From a virus, in IMG/VR virus record IMGVR_UViG_3300035698_029839, positions 233,711 to 297,710 of that record: a stretch of 64,000 bases of DNA; one strand, 5' to 3'. A model generated the notes under the pieces. It was not told the origin of the DNA, made no database searches, and worked only from the letters and a program-made list of their open reading frames with translations. Positions 12,469-32,207 of this stretch are shown piece by piece. Within the stretch, counting starts at the first letter, position 1, and each line of letters begins with the position of its first letter. A program made the position numbers and the translations under genes.

Positions 12469-13182
12469 ATGAAACAAAAAACAGGGCCTAAAAGGACTAG
12501 TATTATATGGCAGATGTCAAAAAAAGATTTTACAGAAAATGTGAAAAAAAGTTCTACTTTTAAAGAGATATTAAAATATTTTGGATTAGAAAATAAAGGT
12601 AGCAATTACAAAACATTAAAAAAAAGATTAGAGGAAGAAAATATAAATTATTCTCATATTCCTACAGGAGTAGGATGTAACAAAGGAATGAAAATAAATA
12701 GAAAAGCTATCTCATTAGAAAAAGTAATGATAGAAAATTCTACTTATTGCAGGGGGACTCTTAAAAAAAGATTATTAAAGAATGGTATGTTAGAAAATAA
12801 ATGTATGATCTGTGATCAACTACCTGAACATAATGGGATTAAATTAGTAATGGTTTTAGATCATATTAATGGAACTCCTAATGATCATAGATTAGAAAAT
12901 TTAAGATTACTTTGTCCTAATTGCAATAGCCAACAATCAACTTTTGCTGGAAAAAGGCATAAAAAACATTATTATTGTGAAAAATGTGGGAATAAAAGAA
13001 AAAATAAACAAAGTAAATATTGTTTTAGTTGTTCTGTTAAATTAAATGGGCAAAATAGAAGAAAAGTTAAAAATAGACCATCTAAAGAAAAATTATTAAA
13101 AGAAATAAAAGAAACTAATTATTGTGCTGTTGGTAGAAAATATGATGTAAGTGATAGTGCTATTAGAAAATGGTTGAAATGA
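12469..13182 (+). CDS. HNH homing-type endonuclease
   Basis: 237 residues. An N-terminal DNA-binding-like repeat (about 14-65), then the HNH core: CMIC (110s), MVLDHINGTPNDHRLENLRLLCPNCNSQ with catalytic-type His and Asn and a second Cys pair, a CEKC/CFSC zinc ribbon, and a C-terminal helix-turn-helix (VGRKYDVSDSAIRKWLK). Free-standing homing endonucleases nick or cut specific DNA and spread by gene conversion. It lies between tRNA-Gln and tRNA-Asn and is a close paralogue of the gene at 15078. Confidence 0.9.
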   Translation: MKQKTGPKRTSIIWQMSKKDFTENVKKSSTFKEILKYFGLENKGSNYKTLKKRLEEENINYSHIPTGVGCNKGMKINRKAISLEKVMIENSTYCRGTLKKRLLKNGMLENKCMICDQLPEHNGIKLVMVLDHINGTPNDHRLENLRLLCPNCNSQQSTFAGKRHKKHYYCEKCGNKRKNKQSKYCFSCSVKLNGQNRRKVKNRPSKEKLLKEIKETNYCAVGRKYDVSDSAIRKWLK

Positions 13183-13589: not shown

Positions 13590-13808
13590 ATGAAAGAAGT
13601 CTTGATAGAATTAGTAAAAAGGGTAAGTAGGAAAGCAGTTATATTAGCAATAGCTATGGTGTTGGTATATATGGTTATTATAACACCGAATGCCGTAAAT
13701 GCAGTGATAGCTATAGGGGTGATTTCTGGTTTATCAATAGTAGGAGCAGGACTTCAATTTTATTTAGATCTTAAAAAGATCAAAGATGACGAAACAGATA
13801 AAATTTAA
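13590..13808 (+). CDS. Small membrane protein
   Basis: 72 residues, two transmembrane helices (about 17-34 and 38-58) and a charged C-terminus. The only membrane-protein gene inside the tRNA island; its stop runs into the Y-RNA-like gene. Ribosome site AAGGGAGA. Confidence 0.75.
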   Translation: MKEVLIELVKRVSRKAVILAIAMVLVYMVIITPNAVNAVIAIGVISGLSIVGAGLQFYLDLKKIKDDETDKI

Positions 13809-13953
13809 GCAGGTTGAATGTGAGTAAGTTATCGCTTATGGAGCCTGATGTGGATGGTTCGATTCCTCCTCTCTCGATTACAAATTGTTCGAGAGATAGC
13901 TTAACGGTAGAGCGCAGTAAAAACACTTATTCCTCCCACATATCTGCTTTTTT
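13807..13953 (+). ncRNA. Y-RNA-like RNA, copy A
   Basis: Closing stem AAGCAG...CTGCTTTTTT brings together GGTTGAATG, GTTATCG and ACATATC, the arrangement of the Ro60-binding stem in Y RNAs (established for the family; here by resemblance). Inside, a TTCGATT T-loop, a 7-bp CTCTCGA/TCGAGAG stem and a D-arm-like AGCTTAACGGTAGAGC follow in circularly permuted tRNA order. Ends in a T-run. Confidence 0.6.
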
Positions 13954-14134: not shown

Positions 14135-14136
14135 TT

Positions 14137-14263
14137 ACACAGGTTGATCGCATGAAGGTTATCGGATAAAACATTTTTTCTTCAAACAAAAAATGCAAGT
14201 AGGGTTCAAACCCTTACAACCCAGAAATGGGAAAATTCTTCTGCACTAACATATCTGTGTTTT
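14137..14263 (+). ncRNA. Y-RNA-like RNA, copy B
   Basis: Closing stem ACACAG/CTGTGTTTT around GGTTGATCG, GGTTATCGG and AACATATC. Internal T-arm GTAGGG-TTCAAAC-CCTTAC, a CATTTTTT/AAAAAATG hairpin and a CCC/GGG hairpin. Its T-run is directly followed by tRNA-Asp. Confidence 0.6.
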
Positions 14264-14334
14264 CCCCTATTGGTGTAATGGGAGCACGTGGCACTGTCGA
14301 TGCCAGGGCAGCAGATCGAAACTGCTATGGGGGG
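14264..14334 (+). tRNA. tRNA-Asp(GTC)
   Basis: Acceptor CCCCTAT/ATGGGGG, anticodon loop CTGTCGA, T-loop ATCGAAA (A54 instead of T). Confidence 0.88.
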
Positions 14335-14421: not shown

Positions 14422-14466
14422 TTTGGAGTTACTATGAATAAGAATTCTAGAAACTTATTTTAGTAC

Positions 14467-14533
14467 TTTAGTCGTCTAAGGGCAAGGATACCTGTGCAAG
14501 CAGGAGATATGGTGTTCGAGTCGTCATCTAAAT
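14467..14533 (+). tRNA. Degenerate tRNA-like gene (GCA or TGC anticodon)
   Basis: 67 nt. D-arm GTCTAAGGGCAAGGAT and T-arm ATGGTG-TTCGAGT-CGTCAT are good, but the acceptor pairs only TTTAG/CTAAA and the anticodon stem CCTG/CAGG leaves a 6-nt loop TGCAAG. Its body resembles the CCA-encoding RNAs at 16466 and 16640. Confidence 0.5.
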
Positions 14534-14546
14534 ATTACTCCTAAAT

Positions 14547-15077: not shown

Positions 15078-15767
15078 ATGAGAAAAAGAACAAGTGTTGT
15101 GTGGAAGATATCAATAGAAGAATTAAAAAAGATAGTAAAAAAGAATGATAGTTTTGCAAAAATTTTAAAACATTTTGGGATGGCAATAGCAAGTGGAAAC
15201 TATAAAACATTAAAAAAAAGATTAAATTATGAAAATATAAGTTATTCTCATATATCTCAAGGGCTTAATAATAATAAAGGAAGAAAATTTCCAGAAAGAG
15301 CTATTCCCTTAAAAGAAGTAATGGTAAAAAACTCTACCTATTGTAGGGGAACTCTTAAAAAAAGATTATTAAAAAAGGGTTTATTAGAAAATAAATGTAA
15401 TATTTGTGGACAAATTTCTGAACATAATAATATTAAGTTAATAATGGTTTTAGATCATATAAATGGAGTTTCTAATGATCATCGCGTAGAGAATTTAAGA
15501 TTGCTTTGTCCTAATTGTAATAGCCAACAAAAAACATTTGCGGGAAGAAATTCTGTAAGAAAAAAATATAACTGTATTACTTGTGGTAAAAAAATTACAA
15601 AACATTCAAAATTGTGTAAAAGTTGCAGTGCTAGATTGCAAAAAAGAAAAGTTAAAAATAGACCTTCAGTAGAACAATTATTAAAAGAAATAAAAGAAAC
15701 TAATTATTGTGTTGTTGGTAGGAAATATGAAGTAAGTGATAATGCAGTAAGAAAATGGTTAAAATAA
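15078..15767 (+). CDS. HNH homing-type endonuclease, paralogue of 12469
   Basis: 229 residues with the same order: N-terminal repeat, CNIC, MVLDHINGVSNDHRVENLRLLCPNCNSQ HNH core, CITC/CKSC zinc ribbon, and C-terminal helix-turn-helix VGRKYEVSDNAVRKWLK. Sits between tRNA-Pro and tRNA-Glu. Probably a duplicated mobile gene that exploits tRNA genes as target sites. Confidence 0.9.
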   Translation: MRKRTSVVWKISIEELKKIVKKNDSFAKILKHFGMAIASGNYKTLKKRLNYENISYSHISQGLNNNKGRKFPERAIPLKEVMVKNSTYCRGTLKKRLLKKGLLENKCNICGQISEHNNIKLIMVLDHINGVSNDHRVENLRLLCPNCNSQQKTFAGRNSVRKKYNCITCGKKITKHSKLCKSCSARLQKRKVKNRPSVEQLLKEIKETNYCVVGRKYEVSDNAVRKWLK

Positions 15768-15841: not shown

Positions 15842-15887
15842 TTTAATCAAGGCAGAAACTGAGGGTTCGAGTCCCTTCCAGAGTATT
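15842..15887 (+). pseudogene. 3' tRNA fragment
   Basis: A T-arm GAGGG-TTCGAGT-CCCTT and an acceptor 3' strand with no matching 5' half. A tRNA relic between two Glu tRNAs. Confidence 0.6.
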
Positions 15888-15890
15888 CCT

Positions 15891-16115: not shown

Positions 16116-16189
16116 AAACGGGTTGAAGTCTAAAAGTTATCGATCCTTGAAAATCAAACACACTTTTTGACACACCATATCCGTTTTTT
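16116..16189 (+). ncRNA. Y-RNA-like RNA, copy C (minimal)
   Basis: About 74 nt. Closing stem AAACGG/CCGTTTTTT around GGTTGAAG, GTTATCG and ACACCATATC. It lacks the tRNA-like module, so it is close to a bare Ro60-stem RNA. Confidence 0.6.
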
Positions 16190-16202: not shown

Positions 16203-16456
16203 GTGGGTTGATTGATATTGGTTATCGATAATTACTGTGAAAAAGTGCAAGTAAGGATCAAAAAAGAGATTTAGGTAAAGTTAGATTGAGATCACGCCAA
16301 TCAATAAATCTAATGGGAAGACTGAAGATCTTTAAGAGAACCTAGGTTGAAACATACTAAAGGCTTTGTACTGTAAATTTCCCAAAACTTTGTTTAGTCC
16401 TTAGATATCCATGAGATATAAAAAAGGACATCTCCAATTTCTCCAACATATCCACA
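16203..16456 (+). ncRNA. Y-RNA-like RNA, copy D (long)
   Basis: Closing stem TGTGG/CCACA around GGTTGATTG, GGTTATCG and CAACATATC, enclosing about 200 nt of extra sequence with an ATTAGATT/AATCTAAT pairing and a GTCCTT/AAGGAC hairpin. No T-run at the end; the tRNA-like gene at 16466 follows at once, suggesting a shared precursor. Confidence 0.5.
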
Positions 16457-16465
16457 GGCGTTTAT

Positions 16466-16537
16466 CTGAGGGTCGTCTAATCAGGATACCTCCTGTTAGG
16501 GGAGGAGATGTAGGTGTGACTCCTACTCCTTAGACCA
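16466..16537 (+). tRNA. Non-canonical tRNA-like RNA with encoded CCA (1)
   Basis: Acceptor CTGAGGG/TCCTTAG, then A and CCA. Anticodon stem CCTCC/GGAGG, loop TGTTAGG (TTA with G33). T-arm GTAGG/CCTAC but T-loop TGTGACT instead of TTCRANN, and the D-loop (TAATCAG) lacks the G18-G19 pair. Standard finders may miss it. If it decoded, TTA would read the stop codon UAA; a non-decoding role is equally likely. Confidence 0.6.
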
Positions 16538-16639: not shown

Positions 16640-16709
16640 ATTAGAGTAGTCTAATCAAGATACCCCCGTTGAGGGGGAGATGTAGGTGTGACTCCTACCT
16701 CTAATGCCA
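16640..16709 (+). tRNA. Non-canonical tRNA-like RNA with encoded CCA (3)
   Basis: Perfect acceptor ATTAGAG/CTCTAAT, then G and CCA. Anticodon stem CCCC/GGGG with loop CGTTGAG (TTG, G33). T-arm GTAGG/CCTAC, T-loop TGTGACT; D-loop without GG. Close relative of the RNA at 16466. Confidence 0.6.
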
Positions 16710-16715
16710 ATATAT

Positions 16716-16895
16716 GTTAGGGTCTGCTCGAAAGAATTTATTCAGAGATGGGCTGTGAGCTATAAGTTTTGTTAAATGAGTTGGATGACTTGTTTAACGA
16801 AATGGGTTCGCAAAGTCAAAGAGGAAGTGTCTTACACATCCAAAGGTGAGCATGGATCAGAGACTTCGGAGGTTTGAATCCTCCCCCCAACACCA
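16716..16895 (+). tRNA. 180-nt tRNA-like RNA with encoded CCA
   Basis: Acceptor GTTAGGG/CCCCAAC (one mismatch), discriminator A, CCA. T-arm GGAGG-TTTGAAT-CCTCC is canonical. The D and anticodon parts are replaced by about 140 nt with its own GGATG/CATCC and GACTT/AAGTC stems. It does not resemble tmRNA: no pseudoknot set or tag frame evident. Confidence 0.5.
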
Positions 16896-16911
16896 ATTTT
16901 CATTTTTTTAC

Positions 16912-16997
16912 TGTTAGGTAGTTTAAGTAAAAAACAGTTATTAAGGCACACCCCTGTTTTGATAGCAGATGATAGGTGAGATACCTATCCCTTACAC
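16912..16997 (+). tRNA. Non-canonical tRNA-like RNA (4)
   Basis: Acceptor TGTTAGG/CCTTACA (one mismatch), T-arm ATAGG/CCTAT with loop TGAGATA, anticodon stem GTTAT/ATAGC with a 20-nt loop. Homologous to the RNA at 16542 but without a clear CCA. Confidence 0.45.
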
Positions 16998-17105
16998 ATT
17001 GGGTAGCTTATGGGTAAAGTTGGTTATTGAGTCGATTAAAGGTTTATAGTGCTTTTAGTCAATGCCTTAATAACAGAAGGATGGGTCCGATTCCCTCCCC
17101 CGATA
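16998..17105 (+). tRNA. tRNA-like RNA with expanded anticodon arm
   Basis: Acceptor ATTGGG/CCCGAT, T-loop TCCGATT, stem GTTATT/AATAAC holding a 40-nt loop with an internal TTAAAG/CTTTTA hairpin. Abuts the preceding RNA without a gap. Confidence 0.45.
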
Positions 17106-17540: not shown

Positions 17541-17676
17541 GTGGGTTGATAGATAGTAGGTTATCGCTTATAACGAAGTGGTTGTGAGTTCGAGTCTCAC
17601 CGCGGAGGCAACTCTGTGTAGCTCAATGGCAGAGCACTAAAAATTCTATTGTCGCTAACACATCCACGGTTTTTTT
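17541..17676 (+). ncRNA. Y-RNA-like RNA, copy E with clear tRNA mimic
   Basis: Closing stem GTGG/CCAC around GGTTGATAG, GGTTATCG and AACACATC, ending in a T-run. Inside, in order: T-arm GTGAG-TTCGAGT-CTCAC; strand CGCGGAG; a GCAA tetraloop; strand CTCTGTG (7-bp acceptor-like helix); T; D-arm AGCTCAATGGCAGAGC. That is a circularly permuted tRNA with the acceptor end closed by a GNRA loop. Confidence 0.65.
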
Positions 17677-17778: not shown

Positions 17779-17852
17779 GGGGACGCATGTGCCAAGGGTG
17801 GCGAGAGACCTTTGCAAGGTATCTGTGGTCAGTTCGATTCTGATCGTCTCCA
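17779..17852 (+). tRNA. tRNA-Ala(TGC), copy 2
   Basis: Acceptor GGGGACG/CGTCTCC with G3-U70; anticodon loop TTTGCAA; T-loop TTCGATT. Anticodon stem has one mismatch. Confidence 0.85.
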
Positions 17853-17854
17853 TT

Positions 17855-17966
17855 AAACAGGTTGATTGGTTAAAAGTTATCGATAAGTTCGACTCTTATT
17901 CTCCCCTTCTTTCATGGGGAGAAATGGCCTGGGGCCACCTTTTCTCCTACCACACATCTGTTTTTT
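17855..17966 (+). ncRNA. Y-RNA-like RNA, copy F
   Basis: Closing stem AAACAG/CTGTTTTTT around GGTTGATTG, GTTATCG and CACACATC. T-arm ATAAG-TTCGACT-CTTAT, then stem TCTCCCC/GGGGAGA and TGGCC..GGCCA hairpin. Terminator-like T-run. Confidence 0.62.
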
Positions 17967-18041: not shown

Positions 18042-18449
18042 ATGAACTATAAGACAGGAAAATATGCAAAGAAAAAATGTATTGGATGTGGATTAAAAAC
18101 ATTAAACATAAAATTTTGTAGTAATAAATGCCAGCAATTATATTTTTGGGAAAAAAGAAAAAAAGAGATAAAAAAAACAGGAGAGATCCCAGAAAGAAGA
18201 GTTGGTATACGATATCTTAAAGAGGTCAGGGGAGATAAATGTGAGATATGTGATCTTAAAGAATGGAATGGAAAAGATATTACTATGATCATGGATCATA
18301 TCGATGGAGACTCATTAAATAATAAAGATCTAAATCTTAGATTGATTTGTCCTAACTGTGACTCTCAGTTATCAACCTATAAAAATAGGAATAAAGGTAA
18401 TGGTAGACATTCAAGAAGAGTAAGATATGCAGAAGGTAAAAGTTATTAA
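18042..18449 (+). CDS. HNH endonuclease, short form
   Basis: 135 residues. N-terminal zinc ribbon (CIGC...CSNKC), then CEIC, MIMDHIDGDSLNNKDLNLRLICPNCDSQ HNH core. No C-terminal helix-turn-helix. In the tRNA array between Y-RNA copy F and tRNA-Thr. Confidence 0.88.
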   Translation: MNYKTGKYAKKKCIGCGLKTLNIKFCSNKCQQLYFWEKRKKEIKKTGEIPERRVGIRYLKEVRGDKCEICDLKEWNGKDITMIMDHIDGDSLNNKDLNLRLICPNCDSQLSTYKNRNKGNGRHSRRVRYAEGKSY

Positions 18450-19068: not shown

Positions 19069-19398
19069 ATGCCTTATAAAAATAAAGAAGATCAGTTAGA
19101 ATGTCAGAGAAGGTACTATCGTAATCATAGAAAAACTATGATCGAAAGAACCAATAAAAGAGCCAAAGAAATACGAAAATGGTGGAAAGAGTATAAAAAA
19201 ACACAAAAATGTGAAAAATGTGGAGAAAATCACCCAGCTTGTATTTGTTTTCATCATAGAGATCCAGAAGAAAAAGATATAGATCTATCCACTGCCGTTA
19301 CTCATAATCATTGGGGAGAAAAGAGAATAAAAAAAGAGTTATTAAAATGTGATGTTATTTGTTCTAATTGTCATCTTAAAATTCATTGGAATGATTAA
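19069..19398 (+). CDS. HNH-type zinc nuclease, single unit
   Basis: 109 residues: basic helical N-terminus, CEKCGE, CFHHRDPEEKD, CDVICSNCHLKIH. The same unit occurs twice in tandem in the gene at 51303. Between tRNA-His and tRNA-Cys. Confidence 0.85.
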   Translation: MPYKNKEDQLECQRRYYRNHRKTMIERTNKRAKEIRKWWKEYKKTQKCEKCGENHPACICFHHRDPEEKDIDLSTAVTHNHWGEKRIKKELLKCDVICSNCHLKIHWND

Positions 19399-20587: not shown

Positions 20588-21250
20588 TTATATATTTAAA
20601 AATCCATGATCTAAATCCCAGTGATGATTGGGACAAAGAAACATTAAATTTTTAATATCATTAACAACTTTTAATTTTGTGTTTTTGTTAAATTGATTAA
20701 TAGCTTTAATATGACACAAATCTAATTTGTTATTATATGAACAAAGTGGACATTTATTTGGTTTAAGATTATAAAATTTTGCTATTTGATGAGCATGATT
20801 TCTGATGGATTGATATTTGTGTCTTGCATAGGTAGATGTAAAATCTTTAATATATTTCTCTCCATATTGTTCTATTCTGTTAAGAGTAAGACATTTTTGA
20901 CAATAATGGGTTTTTGATTGAGTTAGATTTTGACATCTTAAACATTTTCTTTTAGGGCGTTTTGGAAAAAGACTATTATTTGTTTTTGCAGCACAGGATC
21001 TAGAACAGTATTTAGGGTTTTTAGTTTTTGTTCCACAAGTAAAACAATTAATTATAGGTCTATTAGGAGCTTTTATTTTTATTATTTCTCCAAAACATTC
21101 TTTTAAAGCATTATTCCATGATCCGAATCTTTTGCTTACAGTCCATTTATCAAAAGATCCATATTTATTATAATCATTTAATGATGGAATTTTTTTTATT
21201 TTAATTTTAACTCTTTTAAGGTCTTCTATAAGTTTATTAGTTGTTATCAT
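20588..21250 (-). CDS. HNH endonuclease with N-terminal DNA-binding repeat
   Basis: 220 residues. N-terminal helix-rich repeat (KIPSLNDYNKYGSFDKWTVSKRFGSWNNALKEC), typical of homing nucleases, two zinc ribbons (CFTCGTK..CSRSC, CLRC..CQKC), then CPLC..LDLCHIKAIN and FLCPNHHWDLDHG HNH residues. Opposite strand to the tRNAs; its 3' end cuts into the tRNA-Gly remnant. Confidence 0.88.
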   Translation of the reverse strand: MITTNKLIEDLKRVKIKIKKIPSLNDYNKYGSFDKWTVSKRFGSWNNALKECFGEIIKIKAPNRPIINCFTCGTKTKNPKYCSRSCAAKTNNSLFPKRPKRKCLRCQNLTQSKTHYCQKCLTLNRIEQYGEKYIKDFTSTYARHKYQSIRNHAHQIAKFYNLKPNKCPLCSYNNKLDLCHIKAINQFNKNTKLKVVNDIKNLMFLCPNHHWDLDHGFLNI

Positions 21251-22441: not shown

Positions 22442-23074
22442 TTATATTAGTTTTTTAATAATGTTTTTTATATCATTAAAAGCTTGTTTTAGTATTTTGT
22501 CATTAGATACTAAATCTGGAATAACTATTAAGTTGATGTTTTTGTTAGTTGCTATTTTAGTTTTTTTAGAGTCTATGTTTTGTATTTTATTTAATTTAGT
22601 TTGACCATAGATAGGTTTGAAATGAACTATACCATTCCATTCAATAGCCAATTTAAGACTAGGGATAGCAACATCTGTTTCTAATCCATTTAACATAATT
22701 TTATCGTTAGCTAAAATAGTTAAATTAGGAAATTCTTTTACAAGTAAATTGTAAAATTTAGTTTCTATTTTAGATCTACGAGATTTCCTTTTTAATTTGT
22801 TATTATAAGTGGCAGCGCAAGATTTAGAACAAAAAGATTTACCTGATTTAGATTTTTTTATTTCTGATGGAAGAGTTGTTATTTTTTTATTACAAGATCC
22901 ACAAAAGGTTTTTACGAGGTTTATTTGTTTTTTATGATTATTAAAGCATTTTCTATTGCAAAAAGTGTGTTTATATCTATAACTATATTTTCTTATATTG
23001 CGAGTATGATCAGCTAAAATTCTTTCAAATAATTTTTTACAGTAGTAACATTTTAATTTAATAACTTTTCGCAT
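22442..23074 (-). CDS. Vsr/DUF559-like endonuclease with zinc ribbons
   Basis: 210 residues. Three N-terminal Cys clusters, then SKIETKFYNLL...ETDVAIPSLKLAIEWNGIVHFKPIYGQ..LNKIQNIDSKKTKIATNKNINLIVI, the E..D..E.NG.HH core of very-short-patch-repair/DUF559 restriction-like nucleases. In phages such genes are free-standing homing nucleases. Ends exactly at the 3' end of tRNA-Arg(ACG). Confidence 0.85.
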   Translation of the reverse strand: MRKVIKLKCYYCKKLFERILADHTRNIRKYSYRYKHTFCNRKCFNNHKKQINLVKTFCGSCNKKITTLPSEIKKSKSGKSFCSKSCAATYNNKLKRKSRRSKIETKFYNLLVKEFPNLTILANDKIMLNGLETDVAIPSLKLAIEWNGIVHFKPIYGQTKLNKIQNIDSKKTKIATNKNINLIVIPDLVSNDKILKQAFNDIKNIIKKLI

Positions 23075-30872: not shown

Positions 30873-32207
30873 ATGCCAGTAGTAATAGAACATAAAAAAT
30901 TTAGTTGCACAAAGTTGGGTAGCAATAATAATAAGTTTTGGAACGTAACACTTTATGATAATGATGATGTTATGTCAGAATGGGGAAGACAGGGGAAAAC
31001 CTCACAATCTAAAACTTGGCCAGGTGTGGGTCGTTCTTTTATGGAAAAGAAGATAGAAGAAAAGAACAAAAAAGGGTATCATGAAAACCAAGTAGTCGAA
31101 GGGTCTGGGGAAGTTTCAATATCAGGACATAAAGTTGCTAACACTGAATTAAAAGATATAGCAGCTAAGCAAATAAAATCTAAAAATCCTATCGTAGCAA
31201 AATTAGTTAGTTTTTTAGTCGATGTAAACGCTCATGCTATACATAAAGCAACAGGCGGTAAAATTACATATGATACAAGCTCCGCTACGTTCAAAACTAC
31301 ACAAGGAGTAGTTATACCATCGCAAGTTACAAGGGCAAGAGATTTGTTATCTACTATGTACGATTATGTTAAAAATAACAAATTTGATATGATAGAGGAT
31401 AATTTGAACGAATACTTATCTTTGATTCCGAGAGATTTTGGTATGCACAAGATGAGTCCTTCTGATATTCTTCCAGATGTTGCAGCTGTTGGAGCAGAGA
31501 ATGATATTTTAGATGGTTTGGATTCTTCTTTTGCAGGATTACAAACGTCCACACCGAAAAAGAAAACGACGAAGAAAACAACAAAGAAAAAAGATACTCC
31601 ACAGATTTTTGATGTAGAAATGGGTATTGTTACAGATAAGAAAATCATATCTCATGTCAAACATCTTTATCAATCAACACGCAGAAGTATGCACCAGTCC
31701 AACAGTTTATCTGTACAAACAGTTTACTCTGTAACTATCAAGACAGTAAAAAATGCTTTTGATAGTCATGGAGCAAAGATGAAAAATATTTGGCAGTTGT
31801 GGCATGGTACAAAAGCAAGTAACCTTTTGTCTATTATGAGACAAGGTTTGATTATACCACCGTCAAGCTCTGGACATGTAACAGGTCGTATGTATTCAGA
31901 TGGTGTTTATTTTTCTGATATTAGTACTAAAGCATTAAATTATGCCACTAATTATTGGGGAGGTGGGGGTAGTACTGATAAAACATTTATGTTCTTAGCA
32001 GATGTTGCGATGGGAAAATATCATATAGCTAAAGATTCATGGACTAATTATCCTGTCTCTGGTTCAGATAGCACTTGGGCTAAAGGTAGAGACAAGGGAG
32101 GTGTTAATAGTGGCGTAATAAATGATGAAATGATAGTATATCGTACCGATCAGTGTAATTTGGTTTACCTTGTCGAATTTGTACCAAGGAATCAGCTTAG
32201 GAAATAA
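30873..32207 (+). CDS. Poly(ADP-ribose) polymerase-like protein (WGR, regulatory, ART domains)
   Basis: 444 residues with the core order of DNA-dependent PARPs. WGR domain about 1-75 (NKFWNVTLYD, SEWGRQGKTS, F...KNKKGY). Helical regulatory domain about 85-205 ending YLSLIPRDFG, equivalent to FYTLIPHDFG of PARP1. A Lys/Thr linker (about 220-250). Catalytic ART domain about 265-444: LWHGT (His), SDGVYFSD...ALNYA (Tyr), NDEMIVY (Glu), so the H-Y-E triad is complete, which in the family allows chain elongation. PARPs move ADP-ribose from NAD+ to proteins or DNA ends. The macrodomain gene at 35956 could reverse it. Confidence 0.93.
   Translation: MPVVIEHKKFSCTKLGSNNNKFWNVTLYDNDDVMSEWGRQGKTSQSKTWPGVGRSFMEKKIEEKNKKGYHENQVVEGSGEVSISGHKVANTELKDIAAKQIKSKNPIVAKLVSFLVDVNAHAIHKATGGKITYDTSSATFKTTQGVVIPSQVTRARDLLSTMYDYVKNNKFDMIEDNLNEYLSLIPRDFGMHKMSPSDILPDVAAVGAENDILDGLDSSFAGLQTSTPKKKTTKKTTKKKDTPQIFDVEMGIVTDKKIISHVKHLYQSTRRSMHQSNSLSVQTVYSVTIKTVKNAFDSHGAKMKNIWQLWHGTKASNLLSIMRQGLIIPPSSSGHVTGRMYSDGVYFSDISTKALNYATNYWGGGGSTDKTFMFLADVAMGKYHIAKDSWTNYPVSGSDSTWAKGRDKGGVNSGVINDEMIVYRTDQCNLVYLVEFVPRNQLRK

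What the first reader, a model, noticed from the sequence alone, without database searches (positions are those of the whole stretch)
17541..17676. Circularly permuted tRNA mimic in Y-like RNA copy E
Between the Y stems lie, in order, a perfect T-arm (GTGAG-TTCGAGT-CTCAC), the 3' acceptor strand CGCGGAG, a GCAA tetraloop, the 5' acceptor strand CTCTGTG, and a D-arm AGCTCAATGGCAGAGC. A tRNA elbow would be rebuilt with its termini moved and the acceptor end capped. Copies A and F show the same order. Bacterial YrlA RNAs are known to carry a tRNA-like module, so this supports the assignment.
Basis: partly seen in the sequence, partly recalled or inferred. Interest (0 to 1): 0.8.

Follow-up and report, generated by a model that had tools for sequence, protein, structure and literature searches.

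The report
Phage Y RNA with tRNA-like module
A giant-phage genome carries, inside its tRNA gene array, a small RNA of the known bacterial "Y RNA" class whose middle is folded like a tRNA with its ends moved; the phage also encodes the matching Ro60 protein, so this is a well-supported new example of a known RNA rather than a new kind.

Summary
At 17541-17676 lie, between two Y-RNA basal strands, a 5-bp T-arm, a 7-bp acceptor-like helix capped by GCAA, the linker UA and a D-arm, with every elbow nucleotide checked in place. RNAalifold recovers this structure from seven phage homologues. Covariation is strong: 45 double-change cells against 15.6 in shuffles (0/500). Un-permuted, with an anticodon arm that I supplied, the module is called a tRNA by ARAGORN; 0 of 300 shuffles are. 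The record (297,710 bases) encodes a full Ro60 (TROVE + vWA) about 55 kb upstream.

Rfam YrlA (RF02553) has the same T-arm / capped acceptor / D-arm order, and a 2024 paper describes the YrlA crystal structure 6CU1 as a circular permutation of tRNA. A model built from this phage family finds similar RNAs in known Ro60 phages, in Gordonia phage Sixama also inside a tRNA array.

Copies A and F are weaker than claimed. A has a defective T-stem; F has no recognisable D-arm in this window, though its orthologue does.

Less ordinary: six Y RNAs in one tRNA array, three with the tRNA module, one with a partial module, one with none, and one of about 250 nt with an unknown module.

The parts
17541..17548 (+). 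Copy E: basal Y stem, 5' strand GTGGGTTG
   Evidence: pairs with 17659-17667 around a bulged C; helix 1 100% paired in 7 homologues
17552..17560 (+). Copy E: upper Y stem, 5' strand, ending at the start of the conserved GTTATCG
   Evidence: pairs with 17645-17653; 79% of cells paired, 4 pairs with double changes
17560..17566 (+). Copy E: GTTATCG, the most conserved block of the family
   Evidence: present in all six window copies and in homologues in two relatives
17584..17600 (+). Copy E: T-arm, loop TTCGAGT
17601..17607 (+). Copy E: acceptor-like helix, strand equivalent to the tRNA 3' acceptor strand
   Evidence: all 7 pairs show double changes among homologues
17608..17611 (+). Copy E: GCAA (GNRA) tetraloop capping the acceptor-like helix
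   Evidence: sequence; the cap is not conserved in sequence or length in homologues
17612..17618 (+). Copy E: acceptor-like helix, strand equivalent to the tRNA 5' acceptor strand
17619..17635 (+). Copy E: linker UA (positions 8-9) and D-arm GCTC-AATGGCA-GAGC with the G18G19 equivalent
17645..17653 (+). Copy E: upper Y stem, 3' strand
17659..17667 (+). Copy E: basal Y stem, 3' strand CACATCCAC
17670..17676 (+). Copy E: run of seven T after the basal stem; may help termination or be an RNase trimming site
   Evidence: sequence only
13807..13953 (+). Copy A: Y RNA with tRNA-like module (T-arm 13852-13869 imperfect, acceptor 13870-13877/13889-13896, D-arm 13897-13913)
   Evidence: model R1 111.9 bits; coordinates; R1 was built partly from it
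14136..14265 (+). Copy B: Y RNA with A/T-rich hairpin, T-arm-like hairpin 14199-14217 and short hairpin; no D-arm seen
   Evidence: R1 41.6 bits, not in the training set; orthologue in G001
16116..16189 (+). Copy C: short Y RNA without effector module
   Evidence: R1 42.1 bits, not in the training set; orthologues in G001 and G003
16203..16455 (+). Copy D: Y RNA of about 250 nt with a long module that is not tRNA-like by its sequence
   Evidence: Y motif; orthologue in G001, 78% identical over its first 186 columns
17855..17966 (+). Copy F: Y RNA with T-arm 17883-17899 and capped acceptor 17900-17906/17916-17922; D-arm not recognisable
   Evidence: R1 87.3 bits; coordinates; R1 was built partly from it

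Best explanation
Copy E is a phage-encoded YrlA-type Y RNA. Its basal stem, with the conserved GGTTGA / GTTATCG / ACAYATC blocks, is the binding site for the phage's own Ro60 ring protein (inferred from family knowledge). The middle of the RNA folds as a circularly permuted tRNA: T-arm stacked on a capped acceptor helix, docked to a D-arm through the usual elbow contacts, with the Y stem where the anticodon arm would be (helices shown by covariation; 3D fold inferred from the YrlA crystal structure). The likeliest function is a tether and gate: Y RNA bound to Ro60 controls access to the ring, and the tRNA-like end recruits host tRNA-binding or RNA-decay proteins, by analogy with the PNPase-containing RYPER complex of Deinococcus, steering RNA degradation or quality control during infection (inferred; no PNPase gene was found in this record, so it would be the host's). 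Because the acceptor end is closed by a tetraloop and there is no anticodon, it cannot be charged or decode. The confidence given is for the identity as a YrlA-type Y RNA; for the tether function alone I would say about 0.5.
For: Exact anatomy. RNAalifold on an alignment not fitted to the structure recovers it. Covariation: 20 of 33 pairs with double changes, 45 cells against 15.6 in shuffles, 0/500; sliding the partner destroys it. With more distant phages, 94% of cells paired and 146 double-change cells against 45.5 (alignment fitted to the model). Rfam YrlA hit with the same order. Un-permuted module called tRNA by ARAGORN in 7/7 copies, native order in 0/7; shuffles 0/300 each, or 5-34/300 if the T-arm is kept. 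Ro60 with TROVE and vWA domains in the same record. Orthologous arrays in relatives G001 and G003. Same RNA beside or near Ro60, or in a tRNA array, in isolated phages. Function in relatives: PMC8394870, PMC8058203.
Against: The Rfam score is well below the gathering cut-off (37.2 against 69). No expression, binding or probing data. Ro60 lies about 55 kb away, not beside the RNA. The minimum-energy fold also places the GTTATCG block partly in a small hairpin, so the junction is not settled. Tethering of PNPase is shown only in Deinococcus; no PNPase or RtcB gene was found here.
Confidence: 0.88

Rival explanations
1. The order is an accident of a degenerate tRNA array: the 3' half of a dead tRNA followed by the 5' half of the next one, with acceptor strands that happen to pair.
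For: Tandem tRNA junctions show this order and give weak hits to the descriptor and to model R1; tRNA remnants such as 15855-15889 exist in the array.
Against: E is enclosed by conserved Y stems; the helices covary in relatives; ARAGORN finds no flanking tRNA halves; the same RNA occurs next to Ro60 outside tRNA arrays (FuzzBuster, LinStu).
Confidence: 0.03
2. It is a Y RNA, but the tRNA-like module mainly works as a decoy or sink for tRNA-targeting nucleases or modification enzymes, protecting the phage's tRNAs, and not as a tether for a nuclease.
For: It sits among 33 phage tRNA genes; the T-loop and D-loop carry the sites that TruB and DusA modify in YrlA (PMC8394870); a competitive-inhibitor role was suggested for YrlA (PMC7790460).
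Against: It has no anticodon loop, so anticodon nucleases should not bind it as a tRNA; the Salmonella YrlA was not cut by the RecA-dependent nuclease. The Ro60-binding stem would be unnecessary.
Confidence: 0.2
3. It is a broken or unusual tRNA or tmRNA gene rather than a Y RNA.
For: All arms are tRNA arms; tmRNA genes also occur in these phages (relative G001).
Against: ARAGORN and Rfam call no tRNA or tmRNA there above threshold; the acceptor end is closed by a tetraloop, so there is no 3' end to charge; the Y motifs fit Ro60 RNAs.
Confidence: 0.02

Closest known systems
YrlA RNA (Rfam RF02553; Salmonella YrlA, PDB 6CU1)
   Same: Same helix order: Y stem, T-arm, capped acceptor, UA, D-arm, Y stem; circular permutation of tRNA in 3D (PMC11472068).
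   Different: Score below Rfam's gathering cut-off; Y stem sequence differs; lies in a phage tRNA array with five paralogues instead of an rsr-yrl-rtc operon; no RtcB in the record.
Phage Y RNAs of Ro60-bearing phages (Gordonia phage Sixama, Microbacterium phage FuzzBuster, Mycobacterium phage LinStu, Streptomyces phage Karp, Sinorhizobium phage Phosso)
   Same: Found with the model built here; same module and GTTATC-type motif; in Sixama also between two tRNA genes.
   Different: These phages infect other hosts, with Ro60 only 37-39% identical; the RNA is not annotated in the records read.
tmRNA tRNA-like domain
   Same: A tRNA elbow in a longer RNA.
   Different: tmRNA keeps tRNA order and a free acceptor end; here the acceptor is capped and the termini lie in the Y stem.

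Membership tests
Bacterial Y RNA, YrlA type | Helix order T-arm / capped acceptor / D-arm between Y stem strands | tested here: met
Bacterial Y RNA, YrlA type | Compensatory changes supporting these helices | tested here: met
   0/500 shuffles reach the observed double changes
Bacterial Y RNA, YrlA type | tRNA elbow determinants: T54 T55 C56, A58, G18 G19, U8, A14 | tested here: met
   met in E, A and most homologues; not in F of the window
Bacterial Y RNA, YrlA type | Ro60 (TROVE + vWA) encoded in the same genome | tested here: met
   575-aa protein at about G000:C1:195013-196740
Bacterial Y RNA, YrlA type | Rfam RF02553 gathering score (69 bits) | tested here: inconclusive
   37.2 bits, full-length match; the known Ro60 phages tested also stay below 69
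Bacterial Y RNA, YrlA type | Physical binding to Ro60 and to PNPase | not testable with these tools
   no PNPase gene in the record; needs a host protein and a binding assay
tRNA | Free acceptor end and anticodon arm in canonical order | tested here: not met
   native order called by ARAGORN in 0/7 copies; acceptor closed by a tetraloop

The most novel reading that the evidence does not exclude
The phage uses one Ro60 with a set of six Y RNAs of one basal stem and interchangeable middles (permuted tRNA in A, E, F; partial in B; none in C; a long non-tRNA module in D; another long one in relative G001), so Ro60 would be pointed at different partners by RNA module choice. The tRNA modules may have been supplied by tandem-tRNA junctions of the array in which they sit.
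Probability: 0.25. Interest if true: 0.6.

Novelty: new member of a known kind. Interest (0 to 1): 0.33.

Why it matters
It adds well-covarying sequences to the YrlA class from giant phages, below the reach of the Rfam cut-off, and shows that phage Y RNAs sit inside tRNA arrays where annotation misses them. The set of six paralogues on one Ro60 makes it testable whether Y RNA modules select Ro60's partners during infection.

Tried and rejected
Rfam at gathering threshold (no YrlA call). Pattern scans of viral contigs for whole Y RNAs: of the stretches returned only those of G001 looked real on inspection. Records G002 and G004-G007 hold Ro60 but gave no Y RNA, and several are short fragments. 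RtcB and PNPase were not found in the record. A counterpart of G001's seventh Y RNA was not found in the stretches of G000 and G003 read. The primary papers on YrlA (Chen 2014, Wang 2018) are not in the library (one search tried a wrong DOI), so their content is cited through PMC8394870 and PMC11472068. Promoter scan gave no more than chance. Folding energy alone does not single out the module.

Full report
What was checked. The finding describes, at 17541-17676, a T-arm, a capped acceptor-like helix and a D-arm between two Y-RNA stem strands. Every stretch is there, at the expected place: T-arm 17584-17600, acceptor strands 17601-17607 and 17612-17618 around GCAA, linker UA 17619-17620, D-arm 17621-17635. 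The T-stem is 5/5, the acceptor 7/7 with two G-U pairs and the D-stem 4/4. The positions that build a tRNA elbow (T54, T55, C56, A58 in the T-loop; U8, A14, G18, G19 around the D-loop) are all present.

Chance. A descriptor of this order found 1.85 hits per 64 kb in first-order Markov sequence; one hit in 100 such windows reached copy E's full score. The folding energy of the module alone is ordinary (z -0.92); the whole RNA is somewhat better than shuffles (z -2.39). The window also sits in a tRNA array, where the junction of two tandem tRNAs always shows T-arm, acceptor 3' strand, acceptor 5' strand, D-arm in this order; such junctions give weak hits. So the arrangement alone would not settle the matter.

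Covariation settles it. The window is part of a 297,710-base virus record. A relative of 350,866 bases (G001, Ro60 84% identical) has six copies in the same order inside its own tRNA array and a seventh elsewhere; a third record of 547,943 bases (G003, Ro60 73%) has two. Seven tRNA-like copies were aligned by sequence. RNAalifold, given no structure, predicted the proposed helices, 33 pairs in all. 91% of cells pair, 20 pairs have compensatory changes, and 45 cells show double changes against 15.6 in shuffles (0/500); slid partners drop to 42-56% paired. All seven acceptor pairs covary.

tRNA likeness. With the module put back in tRNA order and an anticodon arm modelled on the neighbouring tRNA-Ala (my addition), ARAGORN calls a tRNA for all seven copies, and for none in native order. 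Fully shuffled modules are never called (0/300 each); with the T-arm kept, 5-34 of 300 are called. Halves swapped between copies are called in 20 of 42 cases, so ARAGORN is a permissive test and this is supporting evidence only.

Ro60. The record encodes a 575-aa protein with TROVE (1.8e-30) and Ro60 vWA (1.9e-61) domains, its TROVE match at C1:195082-196116, about 55 kb upstream of copy E. 349 phage records in the collection hold a relative, all below 60% identity.

Known or new. Rfam YrlA aligns over its full length to copy E (37.2 bits; gathering score 69), with the identical order of T-arm, capped acceptor and D-arm. The literature describes YrlA as having D, T and acceptor arms like tRNA, modified by DusA and TruB, with a stem that binds Rsr and a tRNA-like end that binds PNPase (PMC8394870). 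The YrlA crystal structure 6CU1 superposes on tRNA as a circular permutation (PMC11472068). Phages with YrlA have been mentioned (PMC7765460), and jumbo phages with TROVE proteins too (PMC7824862). The central idea is therefore already described; this is a new member.

Reach of the family. A covariance model built from the seven copies finds the same RNA in isolated Ro60 phages: Sixama (6.5e-12, between tRNA-Gln and tRNA-Ile), FuzzBuster (1.1e-11) and LinStu (2.6e-10) just upstream of Ro60, Karp (1.7e-10) within 1 kb of it, and Phosso (several; 6.9e-7 for the best), none of them annotated as such in the tables read. These were not used to build the model. On the wider alignment 94% of cells pair, with 146 double changes against 45.5 in shuffles; that alignment is fitted to the model, so this count leans its way.

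Other copies. A and F follow the order, but A's T-stem has two non-pairs and F has no D-arm by sequence; the G001 orthologue of F has one with a five-base loop. B has a T-arm-like hairpin without D-arm; C has only the Y stem; D spans about 250 nt with a conserved module of unknown kind. The seventh copy in G001 has another long module and lies beside a tmRNA gene.

How it works. Shown: helices, elbow letters, conservation, co-occurrence with Ro60. Inferred: Ro60 binding by the Y stem, tRNA-like 3D fold, recruitment of a host RNA-decay or tRNA-binding protein. The decoy reading is the main rival.

Noticed in passing
window 16203-16455: Copy D is a Y RNA of about 250 nt whose long middle is conserved in G001 (78% over 186 columns) and matches no Rfam family; its kind is unknown.
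   Followed up: partly
L039:1748-1960 and 2211-2558 (relative G001): A seventh Y RNA with a long non-tRNA module lies about 250 bases upstream of a tmRNA gene (RF00023, 124.7 bits).
   Followed up: partly
window 17779-17855: tRNA-like element with acceptor strands GGGGACG/CGTCTCC that ARAGORN does not call and that gives a weak tmRNA match (21.8 bits).
   Followed up: no
window 14450-14540, 16462-16534, 16640-16710, 16700-16895, 16905-17105: Several further tRNA-like elements missed by ARAGORN, some with unusual anticodon loops or long inserts.
   Followed up: no
window 15855-15889: Orphan 3' half of a tRNA (T-arm and acceptor 3' strand) directly before tRNA-Glu(ctc).
   Followed up: no
window 12469-13182, 15078-15767, 18042-18449, 19069-19398, 20588-21250 (-), 22442-23074 (-): Six ORFs scattered between the tRNA genes look like homing endonucleases by eye; of the two scanned, the first gave a weak HNH_3 match below the Pfam cut-off and 18042-18449 gave none.
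   Followed up: partly
window 30873-32207: ORF with WGR and PARP catalytic domains (Pfam 1.7e-6 and 1.9e-25), an ADP-ribosyltransferase-like protein in a phage.
   Followed up: no
window 19478, 21595, 23250, 24078, 24333: Repeated sequence close to TTCCAGACAAGTGGTTTTT after several tRNA genes and ORFs.
   Followed up: no
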